From Moorella humiferrea (GTDB lineage Bacteria; Bacillota; DSM-521; Neomoorellales; Neomoorellaceae): a DNA stretch of 64,000 bases. Shown one piece after another: positions 21,630 through 53,525 of the stretch. Location: assembly GCF_039233145.1 (NCBI RefSeq), contig NZ_CP136419.1, positions 2,268,001 through 2,332,000 of the forward strand, written 5' to 3'. The notes under the pieces are model-generated. The model saw only the letters and a list, made by a program, of their open reading frames with translations, ran no database searches and was not told the origin of the DNA. The translations under genes and the position numbers were made by a program. Position 1 is the stretch's first letter. Each line of letters begins with the position of its first letter.

Positions 21630-21658
21630 AACCCAGGCCGTTTATAACAACCTGGGTT
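21630..21658 (-). terminator. Terminator after pyrE
   Basis: An 8-bp stem (21630-21637 with 21651-21658, AACCCAGG arm) with 13-nt loop, followed on the minus strand by AAAAATTTTTTTATT. It separates the pyrK-pyrD-pyrE unit from the GntR-led operon. Confidence 0.7.
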
Positions 21659-21668
21659 ATGAATGGAT

Positions 21669-22256: not shown

Positions 22257-22281
22257 AAAAAATCACCCCATTTATGCATTA

Positions 22282-23217: not shown

Positions 23218-23222
23218 TTTAT

Positions 23223-24014: not shown

Positions 24015-24091
24015 GGTCACCCTTCACGCAAAAATCTCTAATATATTCTCCATGATTTGCGATTTTCCTGCATGGGAAAGCGGTATAAAAT

Positions 24092-28044: not shown

Positions 28045-28088
28045 AAATCGACCCTTCTTTCCAGGGTATAATAACGAACGCAACGTGC

Positions 28089-29318: not shown

Positions 29319-29331
29319 TGCCGACCCCCTG

Positions 29332-29517
29332 CTACTCGAAACACCCAAGCTGGCACTGGATGATTTTTATCTTGAGTTCGTCGGCGGCCCGGCCCACTTC
29401 CCGCATGGGTACCTGCAGACGGCGGGCCAATTCCTGGGCCACCGCGCAGGGCAGCCTGCCGCCGTGTTCTGCCGCGGCTTCCTTTACCGCTGCCTGAACG
29501 GCCTGCCGGTCGATCAT
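29332..29517 (-). CDS. Small conserved Cys-tailed protein heading the moco operon
   Basis: 61 residues from ATG at 29517, after a run of GGGGGGG. The sequence looks like a small helical, winged-helix-like fold (AVQAAVKEAAAEHGGRLPCAVAQELARRLQV, EVGRAADELKIKI) ending in CQLGCFE; a third Cys lies in LPCAV. The two C-terminal Cys could bind metal or take part in thiol chemistry. I do not recognise a named family. Its position immediately after the Moco riboswitch and before two moeA genes points to a role in molybdenum or tungsten cofactor handling or control. Confidence 0.7.
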   Translation of the reverse strand: MIDRQAVQAAVKEAAAEHGGRLPCAVAQELARRLQVPMREVGRAADELKIKIIQCQLGCFE

Positions 29518-29571: not shown

Positions 29572-29588
29572 CTGAAGTTTACGAAAAA

Positions 29589-29703
29589 CTCCTTTCCCAT
29601 TCCGGGAGGCAGGCAGGTTTCCCCGCCTACCCCGTCGCTGCCTGTAAAAAAGGCAGGAGGCCAGCAACCATAGCTTTAACACCTTAGGTCCACTGGCTCG
29701 GAG
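29589..29703 (-). ncRNA. Moco (molybdenum cofactor) riboswitch aptamer
   Basis: On the minus strand the leader begins CTCCGAGCC and ends GGGAAAGGAG, so CTCC and GGAG can close the outer helix. GCCAG pairs with CTGGC inside; a CTGCCT..AGGCAG hairpin follows; then GGGGAAACC and GCCTCCCGGAATGGG. These blocks match my recollection of the conserved core of the MOCO_RNA_motif family (CUCCGAGCC, GGGAAACC, GCCUCCCG..GGAAAGGAG). It lies between a strong promoter and a moco biosynthesis operon, exactly where this riboswitch class is known to act. A covariance-model search would settle it. Confidence 0.82.
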
Positions 29704-29721
29704 GTATATGCAGTTATGTTT

Positions 29722-35526: not shown

Positions 35527-35531
35527 ACTTT

Positions 35532-36968
35532 TCACTCCCATTCACACGGCCCGGTAAATCTCTGTAGCGAACTAACCACATTGACACCCAGTGAAAAAAG
35601 CCAAGGCGCCAGCAGGACAGGATAGGTATAGTGTTTACCAGGGTTGAACAGGCCCTGTGGATCAAGCTGCTCCTTCCGTCTCCTGAGTTCGGCCAATTCC
35701 TCTCGAGAGTAAATGATAGGTAAATAAGGAGTATTCCATAGCCCAAGGGAATAAGGATAACCCCCTAGCTTCCTGGCCAGCGCATGTAACCGCCCCGTGA
35801 CAGCCATGGCTACCACATACGCCAGCTTTTGCCTTGCATCTGCACGGTACCCGGTGAAAACTGTCATTTTATCTGGAGAAACAATGGTTCCATAGCTATA
35901 AAATTTAGTGCCCAACCGACGGCTTAATTTTTTTAATGTTTCCCGGTACTTACCTAAATTCTGGAGGGGCAGCCAATCTTCAGCCGCCATTAACGTTGGT
36001 CCTAGTCGCTTAAAACGCATATGGTAGAAACGCTCTTCCCATTTATGAGCCGTTATGTCCGGATCTAAGATTATAGCGTTATATTTTCTGGCAACCTCTT
36101 CTACCACTGCCCTGCCAGCTGCAACGCTTGCTTTTTCTCCTTCATAATCAACCTCAAGAATTTCTCCCTCAGGTGCTGGGGTTCCCAGTTGACGAAGGAA
36201 GTCAAAATAAGTACTGCTGAAATAGCCAAGATGGTAAGGCTTCTCAGTAGCCGCCGCCAGTTCCCTGGCAGCTTCGCAAAGAGTTTCTGATTGATTAAAA
36301 GACAACAGCCAATGCCCCTCTGCCGCTGGAGCTCGCCTGATGCTCAGGGTTATTCGGGTGATAACTCCTAAAGTGCCATCACAACCCGCAAACCATGCAA
36401 CCGGCGGCCTGCTTTCTTGCGTAACCTCTTGAACTGTCCCATCGGATAAAACAACCTCAAGCTTTGTTACCTGATTGCTCAAAGGACCATAATACACGCT
36501 ACCAATACCATACCCTTCCATACTCAGCCAGCCGGCCACTGTTGCCGCAGGAGCGCTGGTTGGGTAGCTTTTAACAGCCCAACCCGATTGCCTTAACTCT
36601 TGATCAAGGGCTTGCCACCGGGTACCTGCTCCAACTGTAACTTCCTCTCGTTCGCCATTCAGCAGCTCGATACCCTTAAAGCTGCTCATATCAAGTGTTA
36701 GCCCTTTTTTTACCGGAACGCTGTTAAAAAATGCCGAGGAACCGCTCCCTCGCGGCGTGATGGGCATACCTTTATTGCTGGCATATTTGACCAGCGCCGC
36801 TGTTTCTTCGGTGTTTACCGGACGGGCCACCATATCGGGGACAGTCTCTAATCCTAATATACGGCACATGATTTTTGGCACTTCCGCTAAATCACGCCCG
36901 TATACTATGCGCTCCCACCAATCTTCAGTAACGCGATCACCAAGTAGGTCGGTTAAAAACTTGTCCAT
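35532..36968 (-). CDS. FAD-linked 2-hydroxyacid oxidase/dehydrogenase (GlcD/VAO type)
   Basis: 478 residues from ATG at 36968 after AAAGGTGG. FAD_binding_4 domain (VARPVNTEETAALVKYASNKGMPITPRGSGS, then SYPTSAPAATVAGWLSMEGYG) and FAD-oxidase C-terminal domain (RRRKEQLDPQGLFNPGKHY). An unusual tail, VLLAPWLFSLGVNVVSSLQRF, could be a membrane-touching helix. Family members oxidise D-lactate, glycolate or related hydroxyacids, or reduce alkyl-DHAP; the substrate is open. It likely sends electrons to the CCG protein downstream. Confidence 0.8.
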   Translation of the reverse strand: MDKFLTDLLGDRVTEDWWERIVYGRDLAEVPKIMCRILGLETVPDMVARPVNTEETAALVKYASNKGMPITPRGSGSSAFFNSVPVKKGLTLDMSSFKGIELLNGEREEVTVGAGTRWQALDQELRQSGWAVKSYPTSAPAATVAGWLSMEGYGIGSVYYGPLSNQVTKLEVVLSDGTVQEVTQESRPPVAWFAGCDGTLGVITRITLSIRRAPAAEGHWLLSFNQSETLCEAARELAAATEKPYHLGYFSSTYFDFLRQLGTPAPEGEILEVDYEGEKASVAAGRAVVEEVARKYNAIILDPDITAHKWEERFYHMRFKRLGPTLMAAEDWLPLQNLGKYRETLKKLSRRLGTKFYSYGTIVSPDKMTVFTGYRADARQKLAYVVAMAVTGRLHALARKLGGYPYSLGLWNTPYLPIIYSREELAELRRRKEQLDPQGLFNPGKHYTYPVLLAPWLFSLGVNVVSSLQRFTGPCEWE

Positions 36969-37049
36969 AAATACCACCTTTGACCAAATCTTAAACCCAC
37001 AACCTTGCACTTATGGTGGTGTGAAGTGGTCACAGCTCTAAACACATTT

Positions 37050-38312
37050 TTAACTAACAAACCTGGCCCCTTGGTAATACCAGGGGGCACCTTTTAGATA
37101 AATCGTATTAGATAAAACCTCTCTGGCTGCGGATAAAGTAGTACCTTTCTGCATCCAAGCCAGAACTGCCCCGGCTCCTTGCAAGCTCCCCACAAATTGT
37201 ACGCCTAGAATTCTACCATCTTTCGTTATTAATTTGGTGTAACCTTTGTCGTTCATATCTGTGCTTATAGTAGTCTCTCCCACATCTTTAAGGGCGGCTT
37301 CAGTAAACCCTGCAGATACAGCTGTAACATCACCGGCTTCTACAATTAAAACCCCTAAAGAGCCGGGATATTCGCGAGGCGCTGTACCTAAACAGTTATG
37401 AGCGACAATAGCGGCCTGCTCTTTAGCACTGGCCCATAATAAACTTAAACCAGGCCTTTTAAGTATGCGGTCCCACGTTTCCACGCAGTCACCACAGGCA
37501 TAAATATTAGAGACGCTGGTAGCCATTTCTTTATTGACTTTGATGCCGCGAAATTGCCCTATTTCCAGGCCCGCGTCTTGGGCCAGGGCAGTATTAGGCC
37601 GTACCCCAGCCGCCCAAATCACCATGTCACAGGTTATAAGGCCCTGGCTGGTTTTTACCCCGGTGACCCTGTCTTTCCCTTCTACTCCTACAACCTTCTC
37701 TCCCACTAAAACCTTAATACCGTGCTTTTCAATCTCTTTTTGAAATAAACGTGAAGCTTCTAAATCAAAAGCAGTAGGTAAAATGCGATCCAGCAGTTCA
37801 ATAAGGGTGACCTCGATCTCCCGCTTACGTAAGGCAATACTTGCTTCCACACCGATGGCTCCTGAACCAACTACAACAGCAGATTTCCCCTCCCAGGCCA
37901 GGATTGCCTCCACGTCGGCCAGGGTTTTAAGAGTAAAATTACCGGCAAGTCTTGTTCCCGGTACAGGCGGCACCAGGGCCACGCTTCCAGTAGCTAGTAT
38001 CAGCTTGTCATACGGCAGTCGTTGTCCCCCTGCACTTACCCGCTGATCTTTAGGGTCAAACCCCTCAGCTGCTATGCCTTTCCATATTTTTATCCCGTCA
38101 AGCCCACGAAAAGGAGGCAAAAAAATATTTTCCTTCGGAAGGTATCCTCCCAGGTAATCCGGCAGGGCACAGGCTGAATATGGCTGTGTTTTTTCAGCTC
38201 CGATTAAAGTAACAGGTACCTCTGGAGCAAGAAGCCGGAGCTGCCTGGCAGCCGTATACCCGGCAATACCGTCACCTATAATTACAATTTGTAAATCCCG
38301 GTAGTTATTCAT
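37050..38312 (-). CDS. NAD(P)/FAD pyridine nucleotide-disulfide oxidoreductase (NADH oxidase/NirB-N type)
   Basis: 420 residues. FAD motif IVIIGDGIAGYTAARQLR, NAD motif AVVVGSGAIGVEASIAL, second FAD motif SNIYACGDCVE. There is no redox-active CxxxxC, so it belongs to the rubredoxin reductase/NirB N-terminal group rather than the disulfide reductases. It overlaps the AOR-like gene by 4 nt. Expected to exchange electrons between NAD(P)H and the ferredoxin-like partners of the same operon. Confidence 0.83.
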   Translation of the reverse strand: MNNYRDLQIVIIGDGIAGYTAARQLRLLAPEVPVTLIGAEKTQPYSACALPDYLGGYLPKENIFLPPFRGLDGIKIWKGIAAEGFDPKDQRVSAGGQRLPYDKLILATGSVALVPPVPGTRLAGNFTLKTLADVEAILAWEGKSAVVVGSGAIGVEASIALRKREIEVTLIELLDRILPTAFDLEASRLFQKEIEKHGIKVLVGEKVVGVEGKDRVTGVKTSQGLITCDMVIWAAGVRPNTALAQDAGLEIGQFRGIKVNKEMATSVSNIYACGDCVETWDRILKRPGLSLLWASAKEQAAIVAHNCLGTAPREYPGSLGVLIVEAGDVTAVSAGFTEAALKDVGETTISTDMNDKGYTKLITKDGRILGVQFVGSLQGAGAVLAWMQKGTTLSAAREVLSNTIYLKGAPWYYQGARFVS

Positions 38313-42768: not shown

Positions 42769-43269
42769 TTAATCCGTGTCAGCACCCCCTTTCAAACTCG
42801 CCAGTAAGTTGCAGCATTGCTCACACAAATTCGCCGGTTTGTTTTGGATACCACGTACAGTCCAAGACGGGCGCATGCAACAATTATTGCGGCAGTGCTG
42901 TAAGCCCAAGAGGTGCCCCACTTCATGGCAGGCCTCTTTACAAACATCTTCTAAATTCTCTATGCGAGCAGTAGAAACAATAGCGCGTTGTTTTCCTGCC
43001 GCTCCAAAGACATAGCTATGCCATGGATCACCTATATCCACACTCACCAGCCACAGGACCAGATCTTTCCCTTGAGGAGCGAGCAATGCTTCGAGGAGGA
43101 AATGAACATCGTACTGCCCGCGAAAAGTGTCCCACCCGGCAGCAGGGGGCTCAAGAGGAGCAACTGGTATGCTCTTTATTAAAAAGAATACTTTCTCTAT
43201 TTGTTTACCAAGCACACCTGCCGCCGGGTACAATTCTGCCTGCCAGTAAAGATATAGATTAATTGACAT
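42769..43269 (-). CDS. Archaemetzincin-like zinc metalloprotease
   Basis: 166 residues. The active site reads HEVGHLLGLQHC, followed by RNNCCM and, 16 residues later, CEQC: the archaemetzincin pattern HExxHxxGxxxC..CxM..CxxC with one residue fewer between the first Cys pair. A second zinc site is thus likely. No export signal. Family members are cytosolic peptidases of unknown target. Lies between the MFS transporter (18 nt) and the molybdoenzyme. Confidence 0.82.
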   Translation of the reverse strand: MSINLYLYWQAELYPAAGVLGKQIEKVFFLIKSIPVAPLEPPAAGWDTFRGQYDVHFLLEALLAPQGKDLVLWLVSVDIGDPWHSYVFGAAGKQRAIVSTARIENLEDVCKEACHEVGHLLGLQHCRNNCCMRPSWTVRGIQNKPANLCEQCCNLLASLKGGADTD

Positions 43270-43287: not shown

Positions 43288-44559
43288 CTACATTTTGCCT
43301 CCGGTCATCAACCTGGCCTGAGGCAGTTTTCTTAGAATTAAAGCGGATATAGGAGCAACTATCGCGCCCACGCCCAGGGCCAGGAATGCCGGTCCCCAAA
43401 TCCTTGCTGCCGTTGGATCGGTCGTAGCGTTGTAAGCCTGTAATATCTTCCCAAAAGCAATCGGAGCGATAATTGTCATCGAGTAGCCAACGGCCGATTG
43501 GAGCCCCAGTATTGTAGCCCTTATTTTGGGCGATACCATATCAGTAAGGCCGGCTTTGTATATGGCAGAGTCTGAAATCACCCAAAAACCTATCCACAAT
43601 CCAACTAAAACCACCAGCCCCAGAGGCTTTCCAATTAAATAGCCGAAGAAGAATTCGGGAATCAGGCTACATGTAGCCCCCAGTAAAATCGCTTTGGTTC
43701 GTCCTATTTTGTCAGCCAGAATCCCAAGCAGCCAGACGGCCGGCGCCCCAACAAGGGTTATACACGCCGCCATTAACCCGCCCCATTTCACAGCTGCATC
43801 TGCCGCCATACCCGCAACACTGGCATTAGCTACCATATAAGGACCAATCCATCCCCAAAAGGCATACAATTCCCACATGTGTCCCATATAGGAGAGAGTA
43901 ATCATGCAGGGACCAGCGTATCCGCCTTCCGGCGCTGGCAAAATTCTAGCTGGTGCTACTGTAGGTATTCCTGGTGCTCCATCAAACTGAACACCCTGGG
44001 TGGGCTTTTCCTGCACAAATAGTAATATAATGAGAAAAGCAAGGAAAACCGGCACTGACGTCCACAGCATTCCTACGCGCCAACCGTGGGCCGCCGCAAT
44101 CGGTGCTGCTACAAAATAACCGCCCGCAGAGGCTGCAGTCAAAGCCCCTGTATAGGCACCGAGAGCCCCACCCCGTTCGTGGGGGGCAAACCAGTTGGAT
44201 AGGAGAGCCATACCCGGAGCATAAATTGCACCAGCGGCACAACCGGTAAGTAACCGCATGATCAAAACGGTCCATTTGTCATGGACAACGAAGACAAACG
44301 CAGTCGCAAAAATCCCTGTTAACAAGGTTGCATAAAGTACGACCCTCTTTGTGCCAATTTTATCGGCGAGCCATCCTGTGATTAATACAACTATCACATA
44401 CCCGGCTTGAAAAGCAGCAATAATCATGCCCGTATCCGAGGCGTTTAAATGGAATTCAGCCGAAATGTACTTCAGCACCGCAGAAAAGTTGTACCATGGC
44501 AAATAGCCAATGATCATTGATAGAACCATCCATAACAAAATTTGCTTTTTCTTTTCCAT
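43288..44559 (-). CDS. MFS transporter (candidate organic anion carrier)
   Basis: 423 residues with 12 predicted membrane segments. MFS loop motif GWLADKIGTKRVV between TM2 and TM3; a related loop, GILADKIGRTKAILL, between TM8 and TM9. First gene of the nine-gene operon and directly behind a sigma-54 promoter. Presumably imports or exports the substrate or product of the oxidoreductases; similarity is to the broad NarK/oxalate-type carriers, and a ligand cannot be named. Confidence 0.83.
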   Translation of the reverse strand: MEKKKQILLWMVLSMIIGYLPWYNFSAVLKYISAEFHLNASDTGMIIAAFQAGYVIVVLITGWLADKIGTKRVVLYATLLTGIFATAFVFVVHDKWTVLIMRLLTGCAAGAIYAPGMALLSNWFAPHERGGALGAYTGALTAASAGGYFVAAPIAAAHGWRVGMLWTSVPVFLAFLIILLFVQEKPTQGVQFDGAPGIPTVAPARILPAPEGGYAGPCMITLSYMGHMWELYAFWGWIGPYMVANASVAGMAADAAVKWGGLMAACITLVGAPAVWLLGILADKIGRTKAILLGATCSLIPEFFFGYLIGKPLGLVVLVGLWIGFWVISDSAIYKAGLTDMVSPKIRATILGLQSAVGYSMTIIAPIAFGKILQAYNATTDPTAARIWGPAFLALGVGAIVAPISALILRKLPQARLMTGGKM

Positions 44560-44666: not shown

Positions 44667-44682
44667 AGCAATTTCTATGCCA
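44667..44682 (-). promoter_or_regulatory. Sigma-54 promoter of the MFS-molybdoenzyme operon
   Basis: Minus strand TGGCATAGAAATTGCT: GG and GC elements with the exact 16-base spacing of the -24/-12 consensus (TGGCACGNNNNTTGCA). About 108 nt before the MFS start. Confidence 0.75.
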
Positions 44683-44700: not shown

Positions 44701-44737
44701 GACAAGGTTGGTAACAAAGACCCAACAACCCCTTGTC
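44701..44737. promoter_or_regulatory. Inverted repeat between divergent sigma-54 promoters (candidate activator site)
   Basis: GACAAGG (44701-44707) and CCTTGTC (44731-44737), centred between the promoters at 44667 and 44909. This intergenic stretch (44560-44981) has no gene; it holds the two promoters and this repeat. Activator binding is an inference from position only. Confidence 0.4.
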
Positions 44738-44908
44738 CTATTTTAACTCACTAAATGTACTATTTTAAGACCAATAAACAAAAATGTCCCAACTTCAAAC
44801 ACGCATTGAGCATAAAAAGCACTAGAGGCGGACCTGCATCTTATCTTTCAATCTAAAAATAAATTAATGCAAATAAATTACGCACAGCATAACACACGAT
44901 TATTTTTG

Positions 44909-44924
44909 TGGCACGAAATTTGCA
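44909..44924 (+). promoter_or_regulatory. Sigma-54 promoter of hdrBC
   Basis: TGGCACGAAATTTGCA matches the -24/-12 consensus at every conserved base. About 58 nt before the hdrB-like start on the plus strand. Confidence 0.85.
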
Positions 44925-44981
44925 TTTGTAGACCTTTATTGGAAAAACTACGTAATTAAAATAGGTTCTGCAGGTGAAATA

Positions 44982-45827
44982 ATGTCTGAAACAATTATTC
45001 TCTACCCCGGGTGTCTGGTTTCCTACCGCTTCCCGGAGTATGAAGCAGCAGCTAAGCTCTTGCTGCAACATCTCGGCTACAATGTGACCAGCCTTCCCCA
45101 CGCCCTATGCTGCGGCTCTTTTTTAGAAGGCAGCACACCAAACTGGATCAATTACACTGCTTACAATCTGGCTCTGGCAGCAAAAATGCAATCCCCTCTG
45201 GTAACGTTGTGTGGTGGTTGTACTAACGCTTTCAAGCGCGTTCAGCACATGTTACTTGCCGAACCGCAGCTTTTGAGCCTGGTAAATGCAAGGCTCGCTC
45301 GCTTAAACCTGAAATTAGAACCTGTTGTACCAGTACAACACCTGATTCAAATTTTGCTGACCAGGCATAAAGACCTGCAAGAAATGGTCACGCGCTTTTT
45401 GCCTTTTAAAGTCGCGCCTGTATATCCATGCCAGGTATTTAGACCCGGCAATATTATGAACTTCGATCACCCCCTACGACCCAGTTCTCTGCTGCAACTA
45501 ATCACGCTAACTGGTGCCACCGCCCAAAATTACTCCCAGGAATATCAGTGCTGCGGTTCCAGCCTTTACATGGTAGACCCCCAAATGGCATTCACCATGG
45601 GTAAAATAAAAATCGAAAGCATGATTGCCTCTGGTGCCGATTTTGCCCTCACCGCTTGCGGGAACTGCCATCTGCTGCTTCAAAGGCTTCAATCCAGATA
45701 CCATCATGGCATTCCTTTTCCTGTCATCTTTTTACCGCAACTGATCGGGCTCGCCCTGGGGTGGTCTCCAAGCCGAATGGGCATTGCCAACCCGCAACTG
45801 AGGAGGCTCCTTACAAATGTTATCTGA
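44982..45827 (+). CDS. HdrB-like subunit (two CCG domains)
   Basis: 281 residues. Two complete cysteine sets: Cys11, Cys43-Cys44, Cys77, Cys80, and Cys150, Cys190-Cys191, Cys226, Cys229, spaced like the CX31CCX32CxxC motifs of HdrB that bind the paired noncubane clusters at which disulfides are cleaved. No transmembrane part. In HdrABC and in the sulfur-oxidising sHdr complex, HdrB is the site of thiol/disulfide chemistry. Here no HdrA flavoprotein is encoded, so the disulfide partner is probably the lipoyl protein at 50844-51284. A very good sigma-54 promoter lies upstream. Confidence 0.87.
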   Translation: MSETIILYPGCLVSYRFPEYEAAAKLLLQHLGYNVTSLPHALCCGSFLEGSTPNWINYTAYNLALAAKMQSPLVTLCGGCTNAFKRVQHMLLAEPQLLSLVNARLARLNLKLEPVVPVQHLIQILLTRHKDLQEMVTRFLPFKVAPVYPCQVFRPGNIMNFDHPLRPSSLLQLITLTGATAQNYSQEYQCCGSSLYMVDPQMAFTMGKIKIESMIASGADFALTACGNCHLLLQRLQSRYHHGIPFPVIFLPQLIGLALGWSPSRMGIANPQLRRLLTNVI

Positions 45828-46176
45828 TTGTCGCCATTGTGATGCCTGCCGCCGCGTCTGCCCCGTCCTAAAACTAGGAGTGCCCGCTTTTCCAGCTTGT
45901 TACGAAACAAGCGAGCGAAGCCCGGCTGTTTGGAACTGTACCAATTGCTGGCTGTGTCATGAAGCCTGCCCTGCCGGAATAAATCTTTGGCAGAAAAAAG
46001 CCCTGGCCCAGCAGCAGTGCATACCTCCAGCCGCGATAGCGCAGGGCATCGATAATCTCAAAGCTACGGGCCTCGTCTTCCCTTTTACGCCAGAGCTGAA
46101 CGAAAGACGCCGGGCTTATGGCCTCGAACCGGTAAAACTGCTAGACCAACGAAAACTGTCGTTACTCATCAGCTAA
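45817..46176 (+). CDS. HdrC-like subunit (two 4Fe-4S clusters)
   Basis: 119 residues, start overlapping the hdrB end by 11 nt. CRHCDACRRVCP and CTNCWLCHEACP are two 4Fe-4S sites, followed by a helical tail. HdrC wires HdrB to an electron source. Its 3' end overlaps the convergent radical-SAM gene by 15 nt. Short but a complete HdrC for soluble complexes. Confidence 0.83.
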   Translation: MLSDCRHCDACRRVCPVLKLGVPAFPACYETSERSPAVWNCTNCWLCHEACPAGINLWQKKALAQQQCIPPAAIAQGIDNLKATGLVFPFTPELNERRRAYGLEPVKLLDQRKLSLLIS

Positions 46177-47142
46177 GGTACAGCACCGGTCATTGAATTC
46201 AATTTCAAGCGCCATCTCACGGGCCAGCCTGATAGTCTCGGGGCTGGGATAGGCTATGGCATTAACGCCTGCATTAATAGCAAATTGCTCTAACAGCGGT
46301 CTTTCATACCCAGCAGGCCGGGCGCAGCCAAGGGAAAGCTGGGCCCGGGGATTAGCTAGCCTGGCCAGGGCAATGATGCGGCCGCATTTTTCCACCGACG
46401 GCAGGGTCACCCTGGCCATAGGAGTACCCCGCAGCGGTGTAAGAACAACCACCACTACGTGCCGGGGTTGGGCGTTGCTAATCATTTTCAGGGCCTCTAT
46501 CTCGCCATTTATGCGTCCATAGTGAAGGCCTACAACTATATGGGGAGCTACCTCTAGTTGATATTGCTGGCATAAATCTAAAAAGCTCTGGTATACCTCC
46601 GGGCCATAATCAAGGTGGTATACATCGCGAATAGTTTCTCGCGCCCCAATAACATCTACCAAAACTTGATCAACGTCAGCTTGCTTTAGTCCGGCAATAA
46701 TTTCCTCGCTTACCAGACCGGTATGCACAATTATTTTAAGGCCCCAGGTTTTGATCTTCTTAATGGCTTCCATAAATGGGCCCAAGGGCACAGCGCCGGA
46801 TTTATCCGCGCCACCGCTCAGAAGAATTCCCTGACACCCTTCAGCTTGAAGCTCTTTTACTGTATCCAACAGTTTTTCCGGGGTGGTGCAGCTAAGCATC
46901 GAATGCAGGAGCTTTTTTTGGCAGTGATCACAGTTCAAAGCACAGCTAGTACCAGTAAGGCTTATGGCCACGAACCGATTACGATTATTACGGTAGTATT
47001 CGTTTTCATAGCCCTTGGTCCCGGGAGCAGAAAAAAAGATCTTGTTGTCAAAATATTGGCGCCTTACCCGCCAGGCTTCGTTTAACAAAATACTTGTCGG
47101 TAGAGACAACCAGGTATCAAAATCAAAACCTTGAAAAGTCAT
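46162..47142 (-). CDS. Radical SAM protein, BioB-like, in the lipoyl cluster
   Basis: 326 residues. Cluster motif CALNCDHC (Cys67, Cys71, Cys74), LSGGADKSG, and a late SLGCARPAGYER that resembles a second cluster region in biotin-synthase-like enzymes. Starts with ATGA overlap of the lplA stop. Last gene of the operon led by the lipoyl protein, so sulfur insertion or modification of the lipoyl cofactor is a fair guess; the exact reaction is unknown. Confidence 0.75.
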   Translation of the reverse strand: MTFQGFDFDTWLSLPTSILLNEAWRVRRQYFDNKIFFSAPGTKGYENEYYRNNRNRFVAISLTGTSCALNCDHCQKKLLHSMLSCTTPEKLLDTVKELQAEGCQGILLSGGADKSGAVPLGPFMEAIKKIKTWGLKIIVHTGLVSEEIIAGLKQADVDQVLVDVIGARETIRDVYHLDYGPEVYQSFLDLCQQYQLEVAPHIVVGLHYGRINGEIEALKMISNAQPRHVVVVVLTPLRGTPMARVTLPSVEKCGRIIALARLANPRAQLSLGCARPAGYERPLLEQFAINAGVNAIAYPSPETIRLAREMALEIEFNDRCCTLADE

Positions 47143-48218
47143 TTTTCATCCTCTCCCTGCAAGCAGGAAACAGTTGCGGCTTTAATGGCAAGTATAAAAT
47201 CATCGGGGGTAACACCAGGGAGATAATATTCCCTGCCGGCGAAAAAAGCCTGTACCCGTTTTTGAAGGGCATTAAGGCGGCAATTTTTTAAAGTTGCTTC
47301 CAAATCAGCGATCAGGCGCGGGGGATAGGCAAAAAAATCGCCTGTAATTAGCAGTCCGCTAATAATATCTCGCTGCCGGTCGAGACATAAATCCACCCTT
47401 ATCAAGCCGCCAGGCGCCTTATGGCTGGATGTGCCCATTGCCTGCCAGCCGGCTTTTCTATGGCCATAAATCCATTCGTCCGAGTTATACCACGGCAGCT
47501 TGTGCTCCAATTCTTTTTGTTCATCTGCCGAAAGGCCTTCTTGCTGAAAACTAACACCCAGCATTTCTTGAAATCCGGCGACTACAGCCTCTTTTATCTC
47601 ATCTAAAGAAGGAACTTGAGCCAGTTCCCGACTCAACCAGGTAAGCCTTTCCCGCAAAGAGTGGATCCCTTTGTCCGCTAACTTTACCGCTGGTATGCGT
47701 AAAGCCTTGACCATTGTGTCCAACCTGAAGTCGATTAAAATCGTACCGTGAAATAGAAAAGCACTCCCTAACTCTGTACCCCCCGCGCCGCTGATCTTTT
47801 TACCGTTGATTTCGATATCGTTGTGCGGGCGGAACTGGGCTTTAATTCCCAATTTGTCTAAAGCTTTTATACATCCCTCGCAAAGCAAACGGTAGGTCTC
47901 TTCTATGGAACCCCAGCCATCTATCACATCCTTGCTGGCAACCAGCTCCCAGCCCAGGATTCCTGGATCCATTAATATAGCACCGCCGCCACTAAGGCGG
48001 CGGTTAATAGCCAGGCCATTCGACCTGCAGAACTCCACGTCGATCTCATCATAAACGTTCTGGTTATAACCTACCAAAACGCAAGGGAAAAACCTTAAAA
48101 ACCTGAGGGTGTTTCTGCTCAGCCTCTTGTTAATTGCCTCTAACAAGACGGCATCGAGGGCCATATTTGTGCCTGCAGGCAACAGCCCGGTATCCAGCAA
48201 GCGCCATGCCTTTTTCAC
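47139..48218 (-). CDS. lplA: Lipoate-protein ligase with accessory C-terminal domain
   Basis: 359 residues from GTG at 48218, overlapping the preceding stop by 4 nt. BPL/LplA catalytic fold: RFFPCVLVGYNQNVYDEID, RRLSGGGAILMD, PHNDIEINGKKISGAGG (lipoyl-AMP Lys). A C-terminal part (about 250-345; GGLIRVDLCLDRQRDIISGLLITGDFFA) is the LplA accessory domain. It would attach lipoate or octanoate to the GcvH-like protein of the same operon. Confidence 0.87.
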   Translation of the reverse strand: MKKAWRLLDTGLLPAGTNMALDAVLLEAINKRLSRNTLRFLRFFPCVLVGYNQNVYDEIDVEFCRSNGLAINRRLSGGGAILMDPGILGWELVASKDVIDGWGSIEETYRLLCEGCIKALDKLGIKAQFRPHNDIEINGKKISGAGGTELGSAFLFHGTILIDFRLDTMVKALRIPAVKLADKGIHSLRERLTWLSRELAQVPSLDEIKEAVVAGFQEMLGVSFQQEGLSADEQKELEHKLPWYNSDEWIYGHRKAGWQAMGTSSHKAPGGLIRVDLCLDRQRDIISGLLITGDFFAYPPRLIADLEATLKNCRLNALQKRVQAFFAGREYYLPGVTPDDFILAIKAATVSCLQGEDEK

Positions 48219-49267
48219 GCCATCTTCACCTCGTTATCAACCGGCGGCTCATACTGGTTCAGCTGGGTACGAATTTCAAGAATATCACCTGGGGATGGCT
48301 GAAAAGGGAAGTTACGAATAGGCTGCGATGGCCTTTCGTTGCCATAAGGGCGATTGCAGGCTACCGTACCATCGGAACCGGGGCAGCCTGATGTTAAAAA
48401 GGGTGCTCCCCCGTTTATCACCTGGTCTAATAACGATGGCGAAACACCGAAATTAATTATTTGTCCATACTCGTTAAACTGCATGTATCGCCCCCGGGTC
48501 AACCCTTTGTTTATCAAATAACGGGCAAGTTGAACCCGCCGGTAATGGCCCAGGTGGGGCTGGGGTCTACCGGCTAATTTGCTACCAGCTTCTGGATAAA
48601 ACGAAAATAAATGAGTTTCTGCACCTAGATCTTCGGCTCGCTGGATCACCTGGACCATCTCGGCCTCTGTTTCTCCAAGGCCAACAACTAGATGAATGCC
48701 AACCTGCTTTTCTCCAAAAACTGCAACGGCTTCTCTCACGCCTTGCCAGTATCTGTTCCAGCTGTGTGGCCCCTGTACCCCATGGCCACGATGGCGATCA
48801 AACAGCACCTCTGTTGCTGCATCAATAGCGATTCCCACCCTATCCGCCCCACTGGTCCGGATTTGTTCCAGGGCAGTTACGCTGTTGACCAGCGTGGGTG
48901 TAATCAGGGCGCTGACTGGATATGGGGTGCTGGCTTTGACTTCCTGAATCACCCGGCAAAGATCCTCCAAAGCGCGCGGATGGGTAATCATCGATACACA
49001 AACTCGTTGCACTTGATCGGTTACTAATAAAGAGCGTTCAATCACTTCTTTTAATGGGTAAACCGGCCAAGTTACCCGGATAAAGGTTGGGGTGCCAGAA
49101 CGTGAGCGCGCCAGGCCGCAATAAGCACAATTGGCAGCACAGCCCTGCTCATATGTTAACAGCAAGTTTAAAGCTTTTAATTTGGCCTCGCGGTAAAATA
49201 CCCCTTCTTTCAGGCCAAGTGTCATGGCTGCAGCCAGGCTGGTTTTTACATATTTTGGGCTCTGCAC
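48215..49267 (-). CDS. Radical SAM protein, candidate lipoyl synthase subunit (LipS-like)
   Basis: About 350 residues; GTG at 49267 lies 7 nt after GGGAGG, while the ATGs at 49285 and 49282 precede that site. Cluster motif CAANCAYCGLARSR, then TFIRVTWPVYPL. Shares with the next gene the segments GLGETE and QMQF.(E/D)(Y/F)GQ(I/V)I.FG, so the two are paralogous partners. Paired radical-SAM genes beside lplA and a lipoyl-domain gene match the two-protein lipoyl synthase LipS1/LipS2 known from Thermococcus and sHdr clusters. This assignment is by context and pattern, not by a search. Confidence 0.7.
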   Translation of the reverse strand: MQSPKYVKTSLAAAMTLGLKEGVFYREAKLKALNLLLTYEQGCAANCAYCGLARSRSGTPTFIRVTWPVYPLKEVIERSLLVTDQVQRVCVSMITHPRALEDLCRVIQEVKASTPYPVSALITPTLVNSVTALEQIRTSGADRVGIAIDAATEVLFDRHRGHGVQGPHSWNRYWQGVREAVAVFGEKQVGIHLVVGLGETEAEMVQVIQRAEDLGAETHLFSFYPEAGSKLAGRPQPHLGHYRRVQLARYLINKGLTRGRYMQFNEYGQIINFGVSPSLLDQVINGGAPFLTSGCPGSDGTVACNRPYGNERPSQPIRNFPFQPSPGDILEIRTQLNQYEPPVDNEVKMA

Positions 49268-49288
49268 AGAGTTTCCTCCCATCATAGG

Positions 49289-50311
49289 TTACTTGGATCG
49301 ATATGTTCTCCCCAGCTCTGCTATCAGTTTATAAATCGAACCATTACCGGCTTCGATTTCATCTTCGTCAAAATCTTCACCGTCTAGTTCAAATACACGT
49401 CTTTGGGTAATCCAGGCCTCTCGCCAGTCCATTTTACAAATTTGTCCTATCAGGGTGGGTACTTCATCTTTATCAGGGGCTCCCTTTAAAAACCAGCCCG
49501 ACATTTCTTCAAGCCGCCCAAAGTTGGAACAGTCGAGCCACAGGCCGGTTTGTTCCAGGGGCTTACCGCTCGCTACTATTTCGATGAATCTTTCTTTTGG
49601 GATCCCAAAGTGAATAACCTGTCCAAAATCGCCAAATTGCATCTGACTGCACGATGATATCTGATTGATGATGAGGTACCTGCCCACTAAGATCCTGTAG
49701 AACTTGCCCAAGCTCACCTTAATTTTAGCGGTAGCTTCCAGGGGGCTAACATAGGGCAAGACTCCCATGTCCTTTGCCTTTTGCATGGTTGCTAGAATCT
49801 GCTGTTCAGTTTCTCCTAACCCCACGCTCAAAGTAAGGCCGACTCTATCCTTGCCCCACAGTTCAACTGCTGCCTCTGTTAATCGCCAGCATTCATCCCA
49901 CCAGGACAGCCCGCTTCTATTTCCATGTCTAACGCTGGCATCCAGGTTTCTGGTGGCGCTAATAAGAGAAAAACAAACTCCAGCGACCCCCGCTTGTTTT
50001 AAGAGCCGCAATTCACTTATATCCTTCAGCGCCCCTGGGCCTAAAGTGACTACGATCGGCCCTCCACCACAATCTACAATCTTACCTGTTAGGCTACACA
50101 CATCTTCTATAACTCCCGGGTATGGATACGTTACAATATTAATACCCCGCTCTCCAGCGGTCCAATCCTGCAAATCTTCTATAGCTAAAAATCGGGTTTT
50201 TTCCAGGGAATTCGAGCAGTAATCGCATGCATTCTGACAGGTTGCGTCCCTACGAAGTAGCATTGCCCGCCAGGGATATGTTTCCGTGTCGAGGGCAACA
50301 TTTAGTATCAT
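49289..50311 (-). CDS. Radical SAM protein, candidate lipoyl synthase partner (LipS-like)
   Basis: 340 residues from ATG at 50311, right after GAGGGAGGG. Cluster motif CQNACDYC (Cys25, Cys29, Cys32), GLGETEQQI, SQMQFGDFGQVIHFGI and a C-terminal acidic stretch. Paralogous to the following gene at 48215-49267 and probably forms a heterodimer with it. LipS1/LipS2 together insert the two sulfurs of lipoyl groups. No classical LipA signature (second CxxxxCxxxxxC at the N-terminus) is present in either. Confidence 0.7.
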   Translation of the reverse strand: MILNVALDTETYPWRAMLLRRDATCQNACDYCSNSLEKTRFLAIEDLQDWTAGERGINIVTYPYPGVIEDVCSLTGKIVDCGGGPIVVTLGPGALKDISELRLLKQAGVAGVCFSLISATRNLDASVRHGNRSGLSWWDECWRLTEAAVELWGKDRVGLTLSVGLGETEQQILATMQKAKDMGVLPYVSPLEATAKIKVSLGKFYRILVGRYLIINQISSCSQMQFGDFGQVIHFGIPKERFIEIVASGKPLEQTGLWLDCSNFGRLEEMSGWFLKGAPDKDEVPTLIGQICKMDWREAWITQRRVFELDGEDFDEDEIEAGNGSIYKLIAELGRTYRSK

Positions 50312-50412
50312 AAATGTCCCTCCCTCTACCCCCATTTTCTAAATTAAACAGACACCACAGCTCGCACAAAAGCCATGGTGCCTGCAACAGCCAGTTAGTG
50401 CCTTAGTTTTAA

Positions 50413-50772
50413 TTAATCTACCCAAAAAGCTTCGACTGCTTCGGTCAAGTACGTGCAGGCATAGGCAAAAGTCTTAGCCCCACCAAAAGGAATCGCAACG
50501 CTTGCTGCTTCGTAAATCTCTTCTTTGGTAGCGCCTTCCTGAATGGCGTTGTAAGTATGAATAACAATGCAGTACTTGCACGGAGTTCTTACACCCTGCG
50601 CCAGCATCATCAGCTCTTTGGTTTTATTATCGAAAACCCCGTAATTGGCAGCAGCATATTTTTCCAAATCCATGTAGGCCTGAATAGTTTTGGGCATGGC
50701 AACCTTGGCCCGCTCCAACCCATCCTGAAAGTCTTTCAAAATACGCTGGGCCCTATTTAGTTCTTCGGCCAT
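50413..50772 (-). CDS. AhpD-like dithiol protein (carboxymuconolactone decarboxylase fold)
   Basis: 119 residues, all helical. The active-site motif is PCKYCIVIHTYNA with Cys65, Cys68 and His72, as in AhpD. AhpD proteins reduce peroxiredoxins or disulfides with electrons from lipoylated proteins. Being directly downstream of the lipoyl protein gene, it likely docks on that protein. The gap to the next gene is 101 nt. Confidence 0.82.
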   Translation of the reverse strand: MAEELNRAQRILKDFQDGLERAKVAMPKTIQAYMDLEKYAAANYGVFDNKTKELMMLAQGVRTPCKYCIVIHTYNAIQEGATKEEIYEAASVAIPFGGAKTFAYACTYLTEAVEAFWVD

Positions 50773-50843
50773 TTTACCCGTACCTCCCTTGGGATAATCA
50801 TTGGGATAATCAATACATTGGCACTAACTGGCCGGTCGTCTTT

Positions 50844-51284
50844 TTAAAAGCCTTTTTTCTCTTGTAGCTTCTTTTGCCGTTCGATTTCAGGTTCTAGCCA
50901 TTCCCTTAAATTATCGCTCCGCAGCAGATTTGCCAGTTCCGCTTCAAGGTTATCGGGTTTGATTTTGGCAATCCATCCCTCACCATAAGGGTCCTGATTT
51001 ACCAGCGAAGGGTCAAACTCCAGCTCGGGGTTTATAGCTAATATTTGTCCTGACACTGGGGCATAAACGCGGCCAACCCATTTGCCAGATTCTATGGACA
51101 TAAAGGCCTTATCCTGTTGTACTTTTTTCCCGGGTTCAACCATCTCGACGAAGACCAGCTCACCAGCCATACTGGTAGCATATTCGGTCATACCCATTAC
51201 AACCACATCATCATCCACGCGAGCCCAAAAATGATGCTTATCATAATAGTAGTCATCCGGGAAATTAAATTTGTCAACCCGCAA
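50844..51284 (-). CDS. GcvH-like lipoyl-carrier protein (LbpA-type candidate)
   Basis: 146 residues from TTG at 51284 (AGGAGG 8 nt upstream). GcvH-type lipoyl domain: KHHFWARVDDDVVVMGMTEYA, the modification hairpin SIESGKWVGRVYAPVSG with Lys68 as lipoylation site, and NQDPYGEGWIAKIKP. Canonical GcvH has ESVKA at the site; here it is ESGKW. No gcvP or gcvT is present; instead hdrBC, lplA and radical-SAM genes are, as for lipoate-binding proteins of sHdr systems. It probably carries a dihydrolipoyl arm between an acceptor site and HdrB. Confidence 0.82.
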   Translation of the reverse strand: MRVDKFNFPDDYYYDKHHFWARVDDDVVVMGMTEYATSMAGELVFVEMVEPGKKVQQDKAFMSIESGKWVGRVYAPVSGQILAINPELEFDPSLVNQDPYGEGWIAKIKPDNLEAELANLLRSDNLREWLEPEIERQKKLQEKKGF

Positions 51285-51330: not shown

Positions 51331-51346
51331 TGCAATTCCTATGCCA
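51331..51346 (-). promoter_or_regulatory. Sigma-54 promoter of the lipoyl operon
   Basis: Minus strand TGGCATAGGAATTGCA, with exact -24/-12 spacing, about 47 nt before the lipoyl-protein start. It differs from the promoter at 44667-44682 in only two of 16 bases. Confidence 0.8.
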
Positions 51347-51536: not shown

Positions 51537-53525
51537 TTAGTCTTCTTTATAAGGAATGTTGTACTGATCTATTTTACGGTAAAGGGTGCTACGACTTATA
51601 CCTAGAACCTTAGCTGCTTCCACAATACTGGGTACCCGATTCAAAGTATTGATTATAGCTCTTCTTTCAATTTCAGCCAAGGGAAGTAATTCTACTTGCT
51701 GCACCGGCGTTGTATACTGCCCCGCTAAAACCGATTCTGGAATATCCCCGCAATCCAGAATTTCACCCTGCGCTACTACGACACCACGTTCGAGGACATT
51801 TTCCAATTCACGAACATTACCGGGCCAATCGTAATCCTGCAAGCATTTCAGGGCCCTTGGGGTAATACCAATCACCTTCTTCCCTAGCCGCTTGCTGATT
51901 TGAGGTAGCATATATTCAACAAGCAGTGGAATGTCTTCTTTGCGCTCCCGCAAAGGCGGTATATTAATCGTAACTACGTTCAACCTGAAGTAGAGGTCTT
52001 CACGAAAAGTGCCTTCAGCCACCTTCGCCGCCAGATTTTTGTTAGTAGCCGCTATAACCCTTACATCAATAGGTATGGGTTTGAATCCCCCCACCCGAAC
52101 GACCTGCCTCTCTTGCAGGACCCTCAAGAGCACCGCCTGGAGATCGAGAGGCATATCACCTATTTCATCGAGAAAAATCGTGCCGCCATTAGCACGTTCA
52201 AACTTTCCCGGACGGCCATTGCGGTTGGCGCCAGTAAAGCTACCTGCCTCATAGCCAAACAGTTCGCTTTCGATCAAAGTTCTAGGAATAGCCGAACAGT
52301 TCACCGCAATAAAGGGTCCTTTACGCCGGCTGGCGTTGTGGATGCTCTGGGCAAACAATTCTTTGCCAGTCCCACTTTCACCTAATAAGAGGATGGTAGA
52401 ATTGGTAAGAGCAGCCGTGCGGGCAATTTCCTTCGCCCTCTCCAGCTTTTTACTCCTGCCAATAATGGCATGAAAGGTGAATTGGGCCTGGGCACCCGTT
52501 ATTTCGTTTACCAGGCGATGAATTGTTTCTCTACCGTGAACGACAATAACCGCACCCATTATTTTGCCTTCCTCGTTTATAATCGGGCGGGCTTTTATCG
52601 TATAACGCAAGGTGTTTTTACCATTTTCAAAGATGACTTCCACATTATCCATTACAGCAGCTTTTTCAACAACGCTCGATAGCGGCGGCGAACATTTGAA
52701 CACATCATCAACAAATTTGCCGATAACGTCTTCTTCTTTTAACCCAAACATACCAGCCACCTTGGGATTAAGCTGTCTAATAAAGCTCTTTTCATCTATA
52801 GTCATAACTCCCTCTGGTACTGAGACAAGGGTCGTTTTCATAATAGCATTGGCCTTAATAATATCTTCCAGAGCTTTTTTAATTTGTATCTCGTTTTCAA
52901 TAGCTTTGGCGGCGGCAATTACCATACCCAAGGTATGTGGATGAACCTTCTCGCTATCGGCTGACATATTAAGAATACCAATCATTTTATGCTCGCCGTC
53001 AAAAATTGGTGCTGCTGAACAGGTAATACTGTGCTGTGTTGCACAATAATGCTCACATCCTACAATCTGCACCGGTTGGCCTATGATAATCGCTGTCCCT
53101 ACCGCGTTGGTTCCTGCTTCTTTTTCGGACCATACGGCTCCTTCCACCAGGTTAATCCGCTTAAAGCGTTCTATTTCTAAAGGATCTCCATCAAGTAGCA
53201 GTACTACACCTTCTTCATCGGCTAAAAAAATTATAAAGCCGCTACCTTCTACTGCTTTATACAACGTTTTTATATACGGTTTAGCAGTCTGCAAAAGGTC
53301 CTGTCTTCTCTTTTTCCTAACGATAAGCTCCTTCGGTGGAATAATGCGAGCTATTTCCCTTGAAAAAGGATCTACTTTCATTTGGGCGCAGCGTTGCCAA
53401 GATTCAAGGATTAGCTTTCGTACCCCCTGAGGAATTTCACCGTGATAAACAAATTTTTCCCAGGCTTCTTTGTTTTTGAAACCCAACAAAGATGATTCCG
53501 TGTTTGCACTGGTGATACTCGTCAA
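51537..53525 (-). CDS. AcoR-type sigma-54-dependent activator (GAF, PAS, AAA+, Fis HTH)
   Basis: 662 residues from TTG at 53525. N-terminal GAF-like sensor (about 85-215) with Cys157, Cys161 and Cys169; PAS at about 230-340; AAA+ domain with Walker A GESGTGKE (382-389), sigma-54 contact loop GSFTGA (428-433, Ser in place of Ala of GAFTGA), Walker B TIFLDEIGDMPL; Fis-type HTH at the end (EAAKVLGISRSTLYRKID). It is the only regulator in the island, and three sigma-54 promoters lie in the same island, so it is their likely activator. The inducing signal is unknown. Confidence 0.9.
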   Translation of the reverse strand: MTSITSANTESSLLGFKNKEAWEKFVYHGEIPQGVRKLILESWQRCAQMKVDPFSREIARIIPPKELIVRKKRRQDLLQTAKPYIKTLYKAVEGSGFIIFLADEEGVVLLLDGDPLEIERFKRINLVEGAVWSEKEAGTNAVGTAIIIGQPVQIVGCEHYCATQHSITCSAAPIFDGEHKMIGILNMSADSEKVHPHTLGMVIAAAKAIENEIQIKKALEDIIKANAIMKTTLVSVPEGVMTIDEKSFIRQLNPKVAGMFGLKEEDVIGKFVDDVFKCSPPLSSVVEKAAVMDNVEVIFENGKNTLRYTIKARPIINEEGKIMGAVIVVHGRETIHRLVNEITGAQAQFTFHAIIGRSKKLERAKEIARTAALTNSTILLLGESGTGKELFAQSIHNASRRKGPFIAVNCSAIPRTLIESELFGYEAGSFTGANRNGRPGKFERANGGTIFLDEIGDMPLDLQAVLLRVLQERQVVRVGGFKPIPIDVRVIAATNKNLAAKVAEGTFREDLYFRLNVVTINIPPLRERKEDIPLLVEYMLPQISKRLGKKVIGITPRALKCLQDYDWPGNVRELENVLERGVVVAQGEILDCGDIPESVLAGQYTTPVQQVELLPLAEIERRAIINTLNRVPSIVEAAKVLGISRSTLYRKIDQYNIPYKED

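What the first reader, a model, noticed from the sequence alone, without database searches (positions are those of the whole stretch)
44909..51284. A lipoate-dependent HdrBC redox module with its own lipoyl assembly kit
HdrB and HdrC face an operon for a GcvH-like carrier with ESGK lipoylation site, an AhpD-like dithiol protein, two paired radical-SAM proteins like LipS1/LipS2, LplA and a third radical-SAM protein. Glycine cleavage partners are absent. sHdr systems of sulfur oxidisers combine Hdr subunits with lipoate-binding proteins and a dedicated LplA/LipS1/LipS2 route, but they have HdrA and other subunits. Here a minimal HdrBC, in an apparent anaerobe, is joined with AhpD. This could be a new pathway in which a lipoyl arm shuttles a thiol or C1/sulfur intermediate to HdrB.
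Basis: partly seen in the sequence, partly recalled or inferred. Interest (0 to 1): 0.9.

Follow-up and report, generated by a model that had tools for sequence, protein, structure and literature searches.

The report
Lipoyl-protein redox relay with heterodisulfide-reductase enzymes
In an acetogen-like anaerobic bacterium, a relative of the glycine-cleavage H protein that has lost its glycine-handling residues sits, with its own lipoic-acid assembly genes, in one co-regulated gene set with heterodisulfide-reductase-type iron-sulfur enzymes, which suggests that lipoic acid is used there as an electron shuttle read by such enzymes instead of the usual dihydrolipoyl dehydrogenase.

Summary
The genes are real, but the unit is larger than reported: about 34.36-53.53 kb. 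Three perfect sigma-54 promoters (0.07 expected in the window) lie in front of three operons next to an AcoR/DhaR-like activator: MFS-Mo enzyme-...-GlcD-GlcF, HdrB-HdrC, and GcvHx-AhpD-LipS2b-LipS2-LplA-LipS1. The third radical-SAM gene is LipS1; the 'pair' is LipS2 plus a degenerate LipS2 paralogue. The carrier (GcvHx) belongs to a separate H-protein clade with the signature [EQ]SxKWxG; all 21 members lost both residues that hold the glycine intermediate. It is not LbpA by the published two-cysteine criterion. Across the phylum GcvHx sits beside CCG-domain iron-sulfur enzymes: HdrB, or GlcF with a GlcD homologue that lost its 2-hydroxyacid-oxidase motifs. In eight genomes it sits in acetoin-dehydrogenase-type operons that carry AhpD (fused to E2 in three); the five checked genomes keep dihydrolipoyl dehydrogenase elsewhere. 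Best reading: lipoyl-GcvHx is a dithiol electron carrier between AhpD and CCG enzymes, an E3 substitute; here it is coupled to a rare Cys-ligated Mo/W enzyme of unknown substrate. The association is well supported. The electron flow and the substrate are inferred.

The parts
34363..35541 (-). GlcF-like Fe-S protein with two intact CCG (non-cubane cluster) motifs
   Evidence: NCBIfam relatives LdhH/TfrB/GlpC; both motifs; linked to GcvHx in G042, L063 and 8+ other genomes
35532..37010 (-). GlcD* FAD protein that lacks the HxGDGNxH and EHGxG motifs of 2-hydroxyacid oxidases
37050..38312 (-). NAD(P)H/FAD oxidoreductase (PadH/CoA-disulfide-reductase superfamily)
   Evidence: the redox Cys of this copy is not conserved in L063
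38309..39415 (-). shortened aldehyde:ferredoxin-oxidoreductase-like protein (N-terminal part only)
   Evidence: NF007354 51 bits over residues 4-220 of 703; aligned with L042/L063
39286..39789 (-). 4Fe-4S ferredoxin-type subunit (PadI-like)
   Evidence: syntenic in G042 and L063
39922..40449 (-). DmsB-type 4x4Fe-4S subunit
   Evidence: 67-71% identity in G042/L063
40462..42669 (-). cytoplasmic Mo/W-bisPGD oxidoreductase with a Cys at the metal-ligand position; substrate unknown
   Evidence: close relatives only in genomes with this module
42769..43269 (-). archaemetzincin-like protein (inside the operon, not generally conserved)
   Evidence: NF033823 93.6 bits, below its 145-bit cut-off; present in G400
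43288..44559 (-). MFS transporter, first gene of a nine-gene operon 44559-34363
   Evidence: PF07690; 90% identity in G400
44667..44682 (-). sigma-54 (-24/-12) promoter TGGCATAGAAATTGCT of the MFS/Mo-enzyme operon
   Evidence: exact match; conserved in G400
44734..44801 (.). three tandem TGTN10GACA-like sites, candidate activator-binding sites (UAS), between the divergent promoters
   Evidence: same spacing (22 and 29 bp) in G400 locus L095
44909..44924 (+). sigma-54 promoter TGGCACGAAATTTGCA of hdrBC
   Evidence: exact match; conserved in G400
44982..45827 (+). HdrB: all cysteines of both CCG motifs present
   Evidence: TIGR03288 153 bits; PDB HdrB E=1.6e-35; alignment
45817..46176 (+). HdrC-like 2x[4Fe-4S] protein
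   Evidence: syntenic in G400, G042, L063
46162..47142 (-). LipS1 lipoyl synthase subunit
   Evidence: NF053742 243.5 bits, above its cut-off of 230
47139..48218 (-). LplA-type lipoate/octanoate:protein ligase with an LplB-like C-terminal domain
   Evidence: PF21948 170 bits; NF053749 60 bits at 265-348, cut-off 65
48215..49285 (-). LipS2 lipoyl synthase subunit
   Evidence: NF053743 231 bits, cut-off 270; motif alignment
49289..50335 (-). LipS2b: degenerate LipS2 paralogue; keeps CxxxCxxC here, lost in L042/L063; auxiliary-cluster motif lost in all four
50413..50772 (-). AhpD-like CxxC protein, the most conserved protein of the module (99/85/82%)
   Evidence: PF02627 and TIGR00778
50844..51284 (-). 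GcvHx: lipoyl carrier, K68 in ESGKWVGR; no cysteine; E14 and D67 equivalents are F and R
51331..51346 (-). sigma-54 promoter TGGCATAGGAATTGCA of the GcvHx operon
   Evidence: exact match; conserved in L062
51462..51478 (.). candidate activator-binding palindrome TGTATCATAATAAGACA
51537..53525 (-). sigma-54-dependent activator with GAF, PAS, AAA+ and Fis-HTH domains (AcoR/DhaR type)
   Evidence: orthologues beside the module in G400 and G042, homologues beside acetoin-type modules

Best explanation
GcvHx is a dedicated lipoylated electron carrier (dithiol/disulfide), not a glycine-cleavage or sulfur-oxidation carrier. LplA attaches octanoate or lipoate to K68 and LipS1/LipS2 insert the sulfurs (inferred from families). 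The lipoyl arm is reduced and reoxidised by two kinds of partner: the CxxC protein AhpD and enzymes whose CCG domains hold non-cubane 4Fe-4S clusters (HdrB, GlcF). In related acetoin-dehydrogenase-type operons this relay takes the place of E3: E2 dihydrolipoyl -> AhpD -> lipoyl-GcvHx -> GlcF/GlcD* or HdrBCA. In the window's variant there is no E2 in the genome. The relay instead joins GlcDF and HdrBC to a cytoplasmic Cys-ligated Mo/W enzyme, a PadI/PadH-like NAD(P)H branch and an imported substrate, all switched on together by an AcoR-like sigma-54 activator. Shown: gene content, co-regulation signals, association, motif losses. Inferred: lipoylation, direction of electron flow, partners of AhpD. 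Unknown: the substrate and the Mo enzyme's reaction.
For: (i) Three perfect -24/-12 promoters against 0.07 expected, and matching UAS-like sites, tie the three operons together; the promoters recur in relatives. (ii) Mo enzyme, Fe-S subunits, NOX, GlcD, GlcF, GcvHx, AhpD, LipS2b, LplA and HdrBC are contiguous in G042 and L063; G400 keeps MFS-HdrBC-LipS1 and activator-GcvHx-AhpD-LipS2b-LipS2-LipS1. (iii) GcvHx proteins form a clade apart from GcvH (100/98) with [EQ]SxKWxG and loss of E14 and D67 in 21 of 21. (iv) GlcD* occurs in 12 of 397 other genomes, 11 of them with LipS2 (27 of 397; p=1.8e-13); 11 of 12 have an adjacent GcvHx, and in the twelfth (G108) the GcvHx ORF lies two genes away in the same operon. 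(v) GlcD* lost HxGDGNxH and EHGxG. (vi) E1a-E1b-AcoX-E2-AhpD stand with GcvHx and GlcDF or HdrABC; AhpD is fused to E2 in three genomes. No full-length E3 lies in these operons in the five genomes searched. (vii) G042 has the module, a full GCS and no E3 above the cut-off.
Against: No biochemistry. G000 itself has a true E3 beside LipA, so an E3 could serve GcvHx too. G013 and G237 have GcvHx-HdrABC but no E2, and G000 has no E2, so the electron source differs or is unknown. AhpD could be a peroxidase using lipoyl as reductant. The Mo enzyme's substrate, and whether GcvHx could carry an acyl or aldehyde intermediate, are open.
Confidence: 0.55

Rival explanations
1. GcvHx is a substrate carrier: the lipoyl thiol binds an acyl, aldehyde or C1 intermediate that is passed between the Mo enzyme, AhpD and HdrBC, as in 2-oxoacid dehydrogenases or glycine cleavage.
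For: All classical lipoyl domains carry a covalent intermediate. AhpD belongs to the carboxymuconolactone decarboxylase fold and is almost invariant (99% between two genomes whose other proteins share 52-96%), as if it had a precise active site.
Against: The residues that hold the aminomethyl arm are lost in every member. No TPP- or PLP-type loading enzyme is in the module, and the constant partners are CCG-domain redox enzymes.
Confidence: 0.17
2. An sHdr-type sulfur pathway: GcvHx is an LbpA that presents sulfane sulfur to HdrBC.
For: LbpA + Hdr + LplA/LipS1/LipS2 (+LipT) clusters are established in sulfur oxidisers (PMC6067878, PMC10332631).
Against: GcvHx has no cysteine, whereas LbpA has two strictly conserved ones. 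No HdrA is in the window's module. The same carrier type stands in acetoin-dehydrogenase-type operons, and G000 carries an acetogen-type gene set.
Confidence: 0.1
3. Peroxide defence: lipoyl-GcvHx reduces AhpD, which reduces peroxides, as with AhpD/E2/Lpd in Mycobacterium tuberculosis (own knowledge).
For: The E-x11-CxxC-x3-H catalytic pattern of AhpD is kept.
Against: No peroxiredoxin was recognised in the module. Control by an AcoR-type activator together with a transporter and a Mo enzyme suggests catabolism. AhpD is fused to E2 in acetoin operons of anaerobes.
Confidence: 0.1
4. The kit is only an extra lipoate supply for the genome's glycine cleavage system; HdrBC and the Mo operon are neighbours by chance.
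For: LipS1/LipS2 next to a GCS operon occurs in one relative (L053/G281).
Against: G000 has LipA and a ligase/octanoyltransferase-like gene beside its GCS. Co-regulation and conservation of the whole set in four genomes.
Confidence: 0.04

Closest known systems
sHdr-LbpA sulfur-oxidising system with sLpl(AB)-LipS1-LipT-LipS2 (eLife 2018 PMC6067878; PLoS Biol 2023 PMC10332631)
   Same: GcvH-like lipoyl protein, Hdr-type CCG proteins, dedicated ligase and LipS1/LipS2 pair, gene linkage
   Different: No conserved cysteines in the carrier, no HdrA in the module, no sHdr gene set; partners are AhpD, GlcD*F, a Mo/W enzyme or an acetoin-type E1/E2; AcoR-type sigma-54 control
Acetoin dehydrogenase operons (acoABCL, AcoR-controlled; own knowledge for the canonical set)
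   Same: Related operons carry E1a, E1b, AcoX, E2 and a sigma-54 activator; the window's activator is of the same type
   Different: E3 (AcoL) is missing from those operons and AhpD-GcvHx-GlcDF/HdrABC stand in its place; the window's genome has no E2 at all
HdrB-GcvH association proposed in Culexarchaeia (ISME Commun 2022 PMC9723716)
   Same: Same idea: the lipoyl group on GcvH as the disulfide of HdrB
   Different: Archaeal [NiFe]-hydrogenase/SdhA/CdhA cluster; the passages read mention no lipoylation kit, AhpD or carrier signature
Glycine cleavage H protein (GcvH)
   Same: Fold and lipoyl-lysine position
   Different: E14 and D67 lost, ESVKxxxD replaced by [EQ]SxKWxG[RKQ]; separate clade
Thiol:fumarate reductase TfrB / HdrD-type CCG proteins
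   Same: GlcF and HdrB carry the double CCG motif used for dithiol/disulfide chemistry
   Different: Attached to a GlcD-like flavoprotein without the oxidase motifs

Membership tests
LbpA (sHdr lipoate-binding protein) | lipoylatable lysine in a GcvH-like fold | tested here: met
   K68 aligned with the lipoyl lysine of GcvH
LbpA (sHdr lipoate-binding protein) | two strictly conserved cysteines, near the N- and C-terminus (some archaeal LbpAs excepted; PMC6067878) | tested here: not met
   the window GcvHx has no cysteine; most relatives have 0-1
sHdr system | HdrA-like flavoprotein with two sets of HdrB/HdrC in the cluster | tested here: not met
   only one HdrB and one HdrC in the module and no HdrA among its genes; GlcF is a separate CCG protein
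Glycine cleavage system | GcvP and GcvT linked; H protein with E14 and D67 | tested here: not met
   GCS is elsewhere in the genome with its own H protein; both residues lost in GcvHx
LipS1 | NCBIfam NF053742 equivalog cut-off | tested here: met
   243.5 bits against 230
LipS2 | NCBIfam NF053743 equivalog cut-off | tested here: not met
   231 against 270 bits for 48215-49285; best family by far and both Cys motifs kept, so LipS2-like in function but below the curated line
LipS2 | applied to LipS2b (49289-50335): radical-SAM CxxxCxxC and auxiliary-cluster cysteines | tested here: inconclusive
   CxxxCxxC kept in W/L062, lost in L042/L063; auxiliary motif lost in all four
HdrB | two CCG motifs (five cysteines each) | tested here: met
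   alignment; first motif 3 residues shorter than the usual spacing; TIGR03288 equivalog cut-off 345 not reached (153 bits)
GlcD glycolate/D-lactate oxidase | HxGDGNxH and EHGxG motifs | tested here: not met
   absent in all module GlcD*; present in an unrelated GlcD in G042
AhpD | Glu + CxxC + His catalytic pattern in the CMD fold | tested here: met
   PF02627, TIGR00778; E53, C65, C68, H72
AhpD | peroxidase activity with a lipoyl reductant | not testable with these tools
   needs purified protein
Dihydrolipoyl dehydrogenase-dependent complex | E3 gene in the operon | tested here: not met
   no E3 in the acetoin-type operons of G371, G070, G038, G080, G108; not searched for G125, G189, G295

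The most novel reading that the evidence does not exclude
A third way of using lipoic acid: a dedicated H-protein-like carrier ferries electrons from lipoyl (or AhpD) to heterodisulfide-reductase-type iron-sulfur enzymes, replacing dihydrolipoyl dehydrogenase in anaerobic acetoin-type complexes. In the window's variant it powers a Mo/W-dependent catabolic pathway that has not been described.
Probability: 0.45. Interest if true: 0.88.

Novelty: new variant of a known kind. Interest (0 to 1): 0.76.

Why it matters
For most of its history lipoate was known from 2-oxoacid and acetoin dehydrogenases and glycine cleavage, all read out by one flavoprotein (E3); sHdr was the first exception. A carrier family with its own signature, found beside HdrB/GlcF enzymes in acetogen-like and other anaerobic bacteria, gives a second and testable exception. 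If Hdr-type enzymes accept electrons from dihydrolipoyl groups, electron bifurcation could be coupled to acetoin or 2-oxoacid oxidation, which would change energy budgets for these anaerobes. The signature [EQ]SxKWxG would also help to correct many genes annotated as glycine cleavage H protein.

Tried and rejected
sHdr/LbpA membership: rejected (no cysteines, no HdrA in the module). Ordinary glycine cleavage: rejected (diagnostic residues lost, separate GCS). E3-like role for the operon's NOX: its redox Cys is not conserved in L063, so not assumed. Glycolate/lactate oxidation by GlcDF: weakened by loss of both active-site motifs. Identity of the Mo enzyme: the nearest solved relatives are polysulfide/thiosulfate reductase, acetylene hydratase and FdhF, all too distant to name a reaction. 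AlphaFold models of GlcD* (pLDDT 55) and LipS2b (pLDDT 55) were poor, so no fold search was made. Literature searches for acetoin dehydrogenase with Hdr, GcvH or AhpD found no description in the held library. The genus of G000 is not named by the tools; MetVF-HdrABC-MvhD and what reads by eye as CODH/ACS genes suggest a Moorella-like acetogen, which is only my inference.
Full report
OBSERVATION. All genes named in the finding exist as intact ORFs at the stated places and hit the expected families. Two labels need correcting. The neighbouring pair is LipS2 (48215-49285) plus a divergent LipS2 paralogue, here LipS2b (49289-50335). Lys68 in ESGKW of the 146-aa protein aligns with the lipoyl lysine of GcvH.

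THE UNIT IS LARGER. The consensus TGGCAYRN4TTGCW has exactly three perfect matches in the 64-kb window (0.07 expected). They are 108, 58 and 47 bases from the start codons of the MFS gene, hdrB and GcvHx. The GAF-PAS-AAA+-Fis activator 51537-53525 lies beside the third. The MFS gene starts a same-strand run of nine genes down to 34363 (archaemetzincin, Mo enzyme, two Fe-S subunits, AOR fragment, NOX, GlcD, GlcF); that they form one operon is inferred from spacing. TGTN10GACA-like palindromes stand upstream of the promoters with the same 22 and 29 bp spacing in the same-genus genome G400. This motif was found by eye and then scanned; the strict form is rare, the loose form is not (122 hits in the window), so it is supportive only.

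CONSERVATION. G042 has MoCoA-FeS_B-FeS_C-AORx-NOX-GlcD-GlcF-GcvHx-LipS2b-AhpD-LipS1b-LplA-LipT-LipS2-LipS1-HdrB-HdrC in one run next to an activator 58% identical, with a sigma-54 site in front of the Mo enzyme. L063 (a Syntrophomonadaceae MAG) has the same order without LipS1/LipS2. G400 (same genus; 58% complete; one of its contigs gives the same gene lengths, order and match scores as L062) keeps both halves on two contigs. In the family of the window (18 genomes) only G000 and G400 have this HdrB type, so the module is patchy and probably mobile (inference); the local G+C of 0.47-0.49 between 32 and 52 kb against 0.57-0.60 at the window's ends fits. The most constrained proteins are AhpD (99, 85, 82%), the Mo enzyme (96, 73, 73%), FeS_B and GcvHx; HdrC and LipS2b drift most.

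THE CARRIER. Aligned with canonical H proteins of the same genomes, all 21 GcvHx-type proteins read [EQ]S/T-x-K-W-x-G-[RKQW] where GcvH reads E-S-V-K-x-x-[SA]-D, and none keeps the Glu of HEW (E14) or the Asp (D67). From my own knowledge of the pea H-protein structure, these two residues contact the aminomethyl arm. A maximum-likelihood tree separates the two groups at 100/98. LbpA proteins were not available for the tree, so the exact relation to LbpA is open; the published two-cysteine hallmark (PMC6067878) is absent.

PARTNERS. GlcD* (at least 256 bits to the window protein) is found in 12 of 397 other genomes of the phylum sample; 11 of these have LipS2 (27 of 397; hypergeometric 1.8e-13; the cut was chosen after seeing the scores and the genomes are related). 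A GcvHx gene is adjacent in 11 of the 12 loci; in G108 it lies two genes away in the same operon. These GlcD* have lost HxGDGNxH and EHGxG and share PYxxGxWN instead, whereas an unrelated GlcD near the G042 module keeps both. GlcF and HdrB keep both CCG motifs. In G013, G237 and G371 the carrier stands with HdrC-HdrB-HdrA (plus an MvhD/FlpD gene in G013 and G237) and LplA, LipT, LipS2, LipS1. LipT is the GG-reductase-like protein described in PMC10332631.

ACETOIN-TYPE CONTEXT. In G371, G070, G038, G080, G189 and G295 the GcvHx-GlcDF or GcvHx-HdrABC genes follow E1a, E1b, AcoX and E2 with AhpD; G125 and G108 show the E2/AhpD end at a contig edge. In G038, G080 and G125 AhpD is fused to E2. Activators of the same type are present in G371, G070, G038, G080 and G189. 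Full-length E3 genes exist in G371, G070, G038, G080 and G108 but not in these operons. G042, which carries the window-type module, has a complete GCS but no E3 above the cut-off. The window's genome, G042 and the L063 genome have no E2, so the window's variant is not an acetoin dehydrogenase.

MECHANISM. CCG domains of HdrB catalyse dithiol/disulfide chemistry, and AhpD of M. tuberculosis exchanges electrons with the lipoyl group of E2 (own knowledge). A lipoyl carrier without its carbon-handling residues, always beside a CCG enzyme and often beside AhpD, is most simply an electron carrier. In acetoin-type operons it would pass electrons from E2 through AhpD to GlcF or HdrB, replacing E3. In the window it links AhpD, GlcDF and HdrBC with a Cys-ligated Mo/W enzyme and an NAD(P)H branch. 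The electron source, direction and substrate are not shown. (Exceptions to 'always': in L049 and L055 no CCG gene was recognised in the stretch fetched.)

LipS2b. The paralogue keeps CxxxCxxC in the window and L062 but has lost it in L042 and L063, and all four lack the C-terminal cysteine motif of LipS2; L042 also has a LipS1 paralogue without the motif. I read them as retired synthases kept as carrier-binding proteins (inference, low confidence).

KNOWN AND NEW. Lipoyl proteins with Hdr and a LipS1/LipS2 kit are known from sulfur oxidisers, and a GcvH-HdrB interaction has been suggested in Culexarchaeia. I found no account of the GcvHx signature, the GlcD*F partner, the E2-AhpD fusion, the E3 replacement or the Mo-enzyme module in the held library, which lacks most subscription papers.

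Noticed in passing
window 29573-29715 (-): Molybdenum/tungsten cofactor riboswitch (RF01055, 76.9 bits) upstream of moeA-like genes 28089-29348 and 26797-28083, in the same window as the Mo/W enzyme.
   Followed up: no
L005 8852-9724 (G000:C1 about 2354852-2355724): A third GcvH-type protein (290 aa, domain fused behind a DGC/CoB-like domain) in an ArsR-controlled cluster with an aminotransferase-V protein and small redox proteins; a separate lipoyl-like carrier, also in G013.
   Followed up: partly
L047/L056 (G047, G153) and L126/L127 (G025, G107): GcvHx-GlcD*-GlcF also occur with an ABC transporter, aldo-keto reductase, amidohydrolase and FMN reductase (G047, G153), or beside an aminotransferase (G025, G107), without E2 in G047 and G025; further unexplained uses of the relay.
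   Followed up: partly
G000:C1:1262537-1263328 and 1941503-1942294: Two HdrB hits with the same score and length far apart in the genome; the first lies in a MetVF-HdrABC-MvhD-like cluster (L097). A large duplication of that region is possible.
   Followed up: no
window 19110-24020: Two separate dihydroorotate dehydrogenase/electron-transfer subunit pairs (19110-20812 and 22282-24020) in one pyrimidine gene region.
   Followed up: no
L042 10470-11540 and 11874-12893: Degenerate LipS1 and LipS2 paralogues, both without the radical-SAM CxxxCxxC motif, flank the AhpD gene in G042.
   Followed up: partly
window 42769-43269: An archaemetzincin-like protein is retained between the MFS and Mo-enzyme genes in G000 and G400 (59% identity) for no obvious reason.
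   Followed up: no
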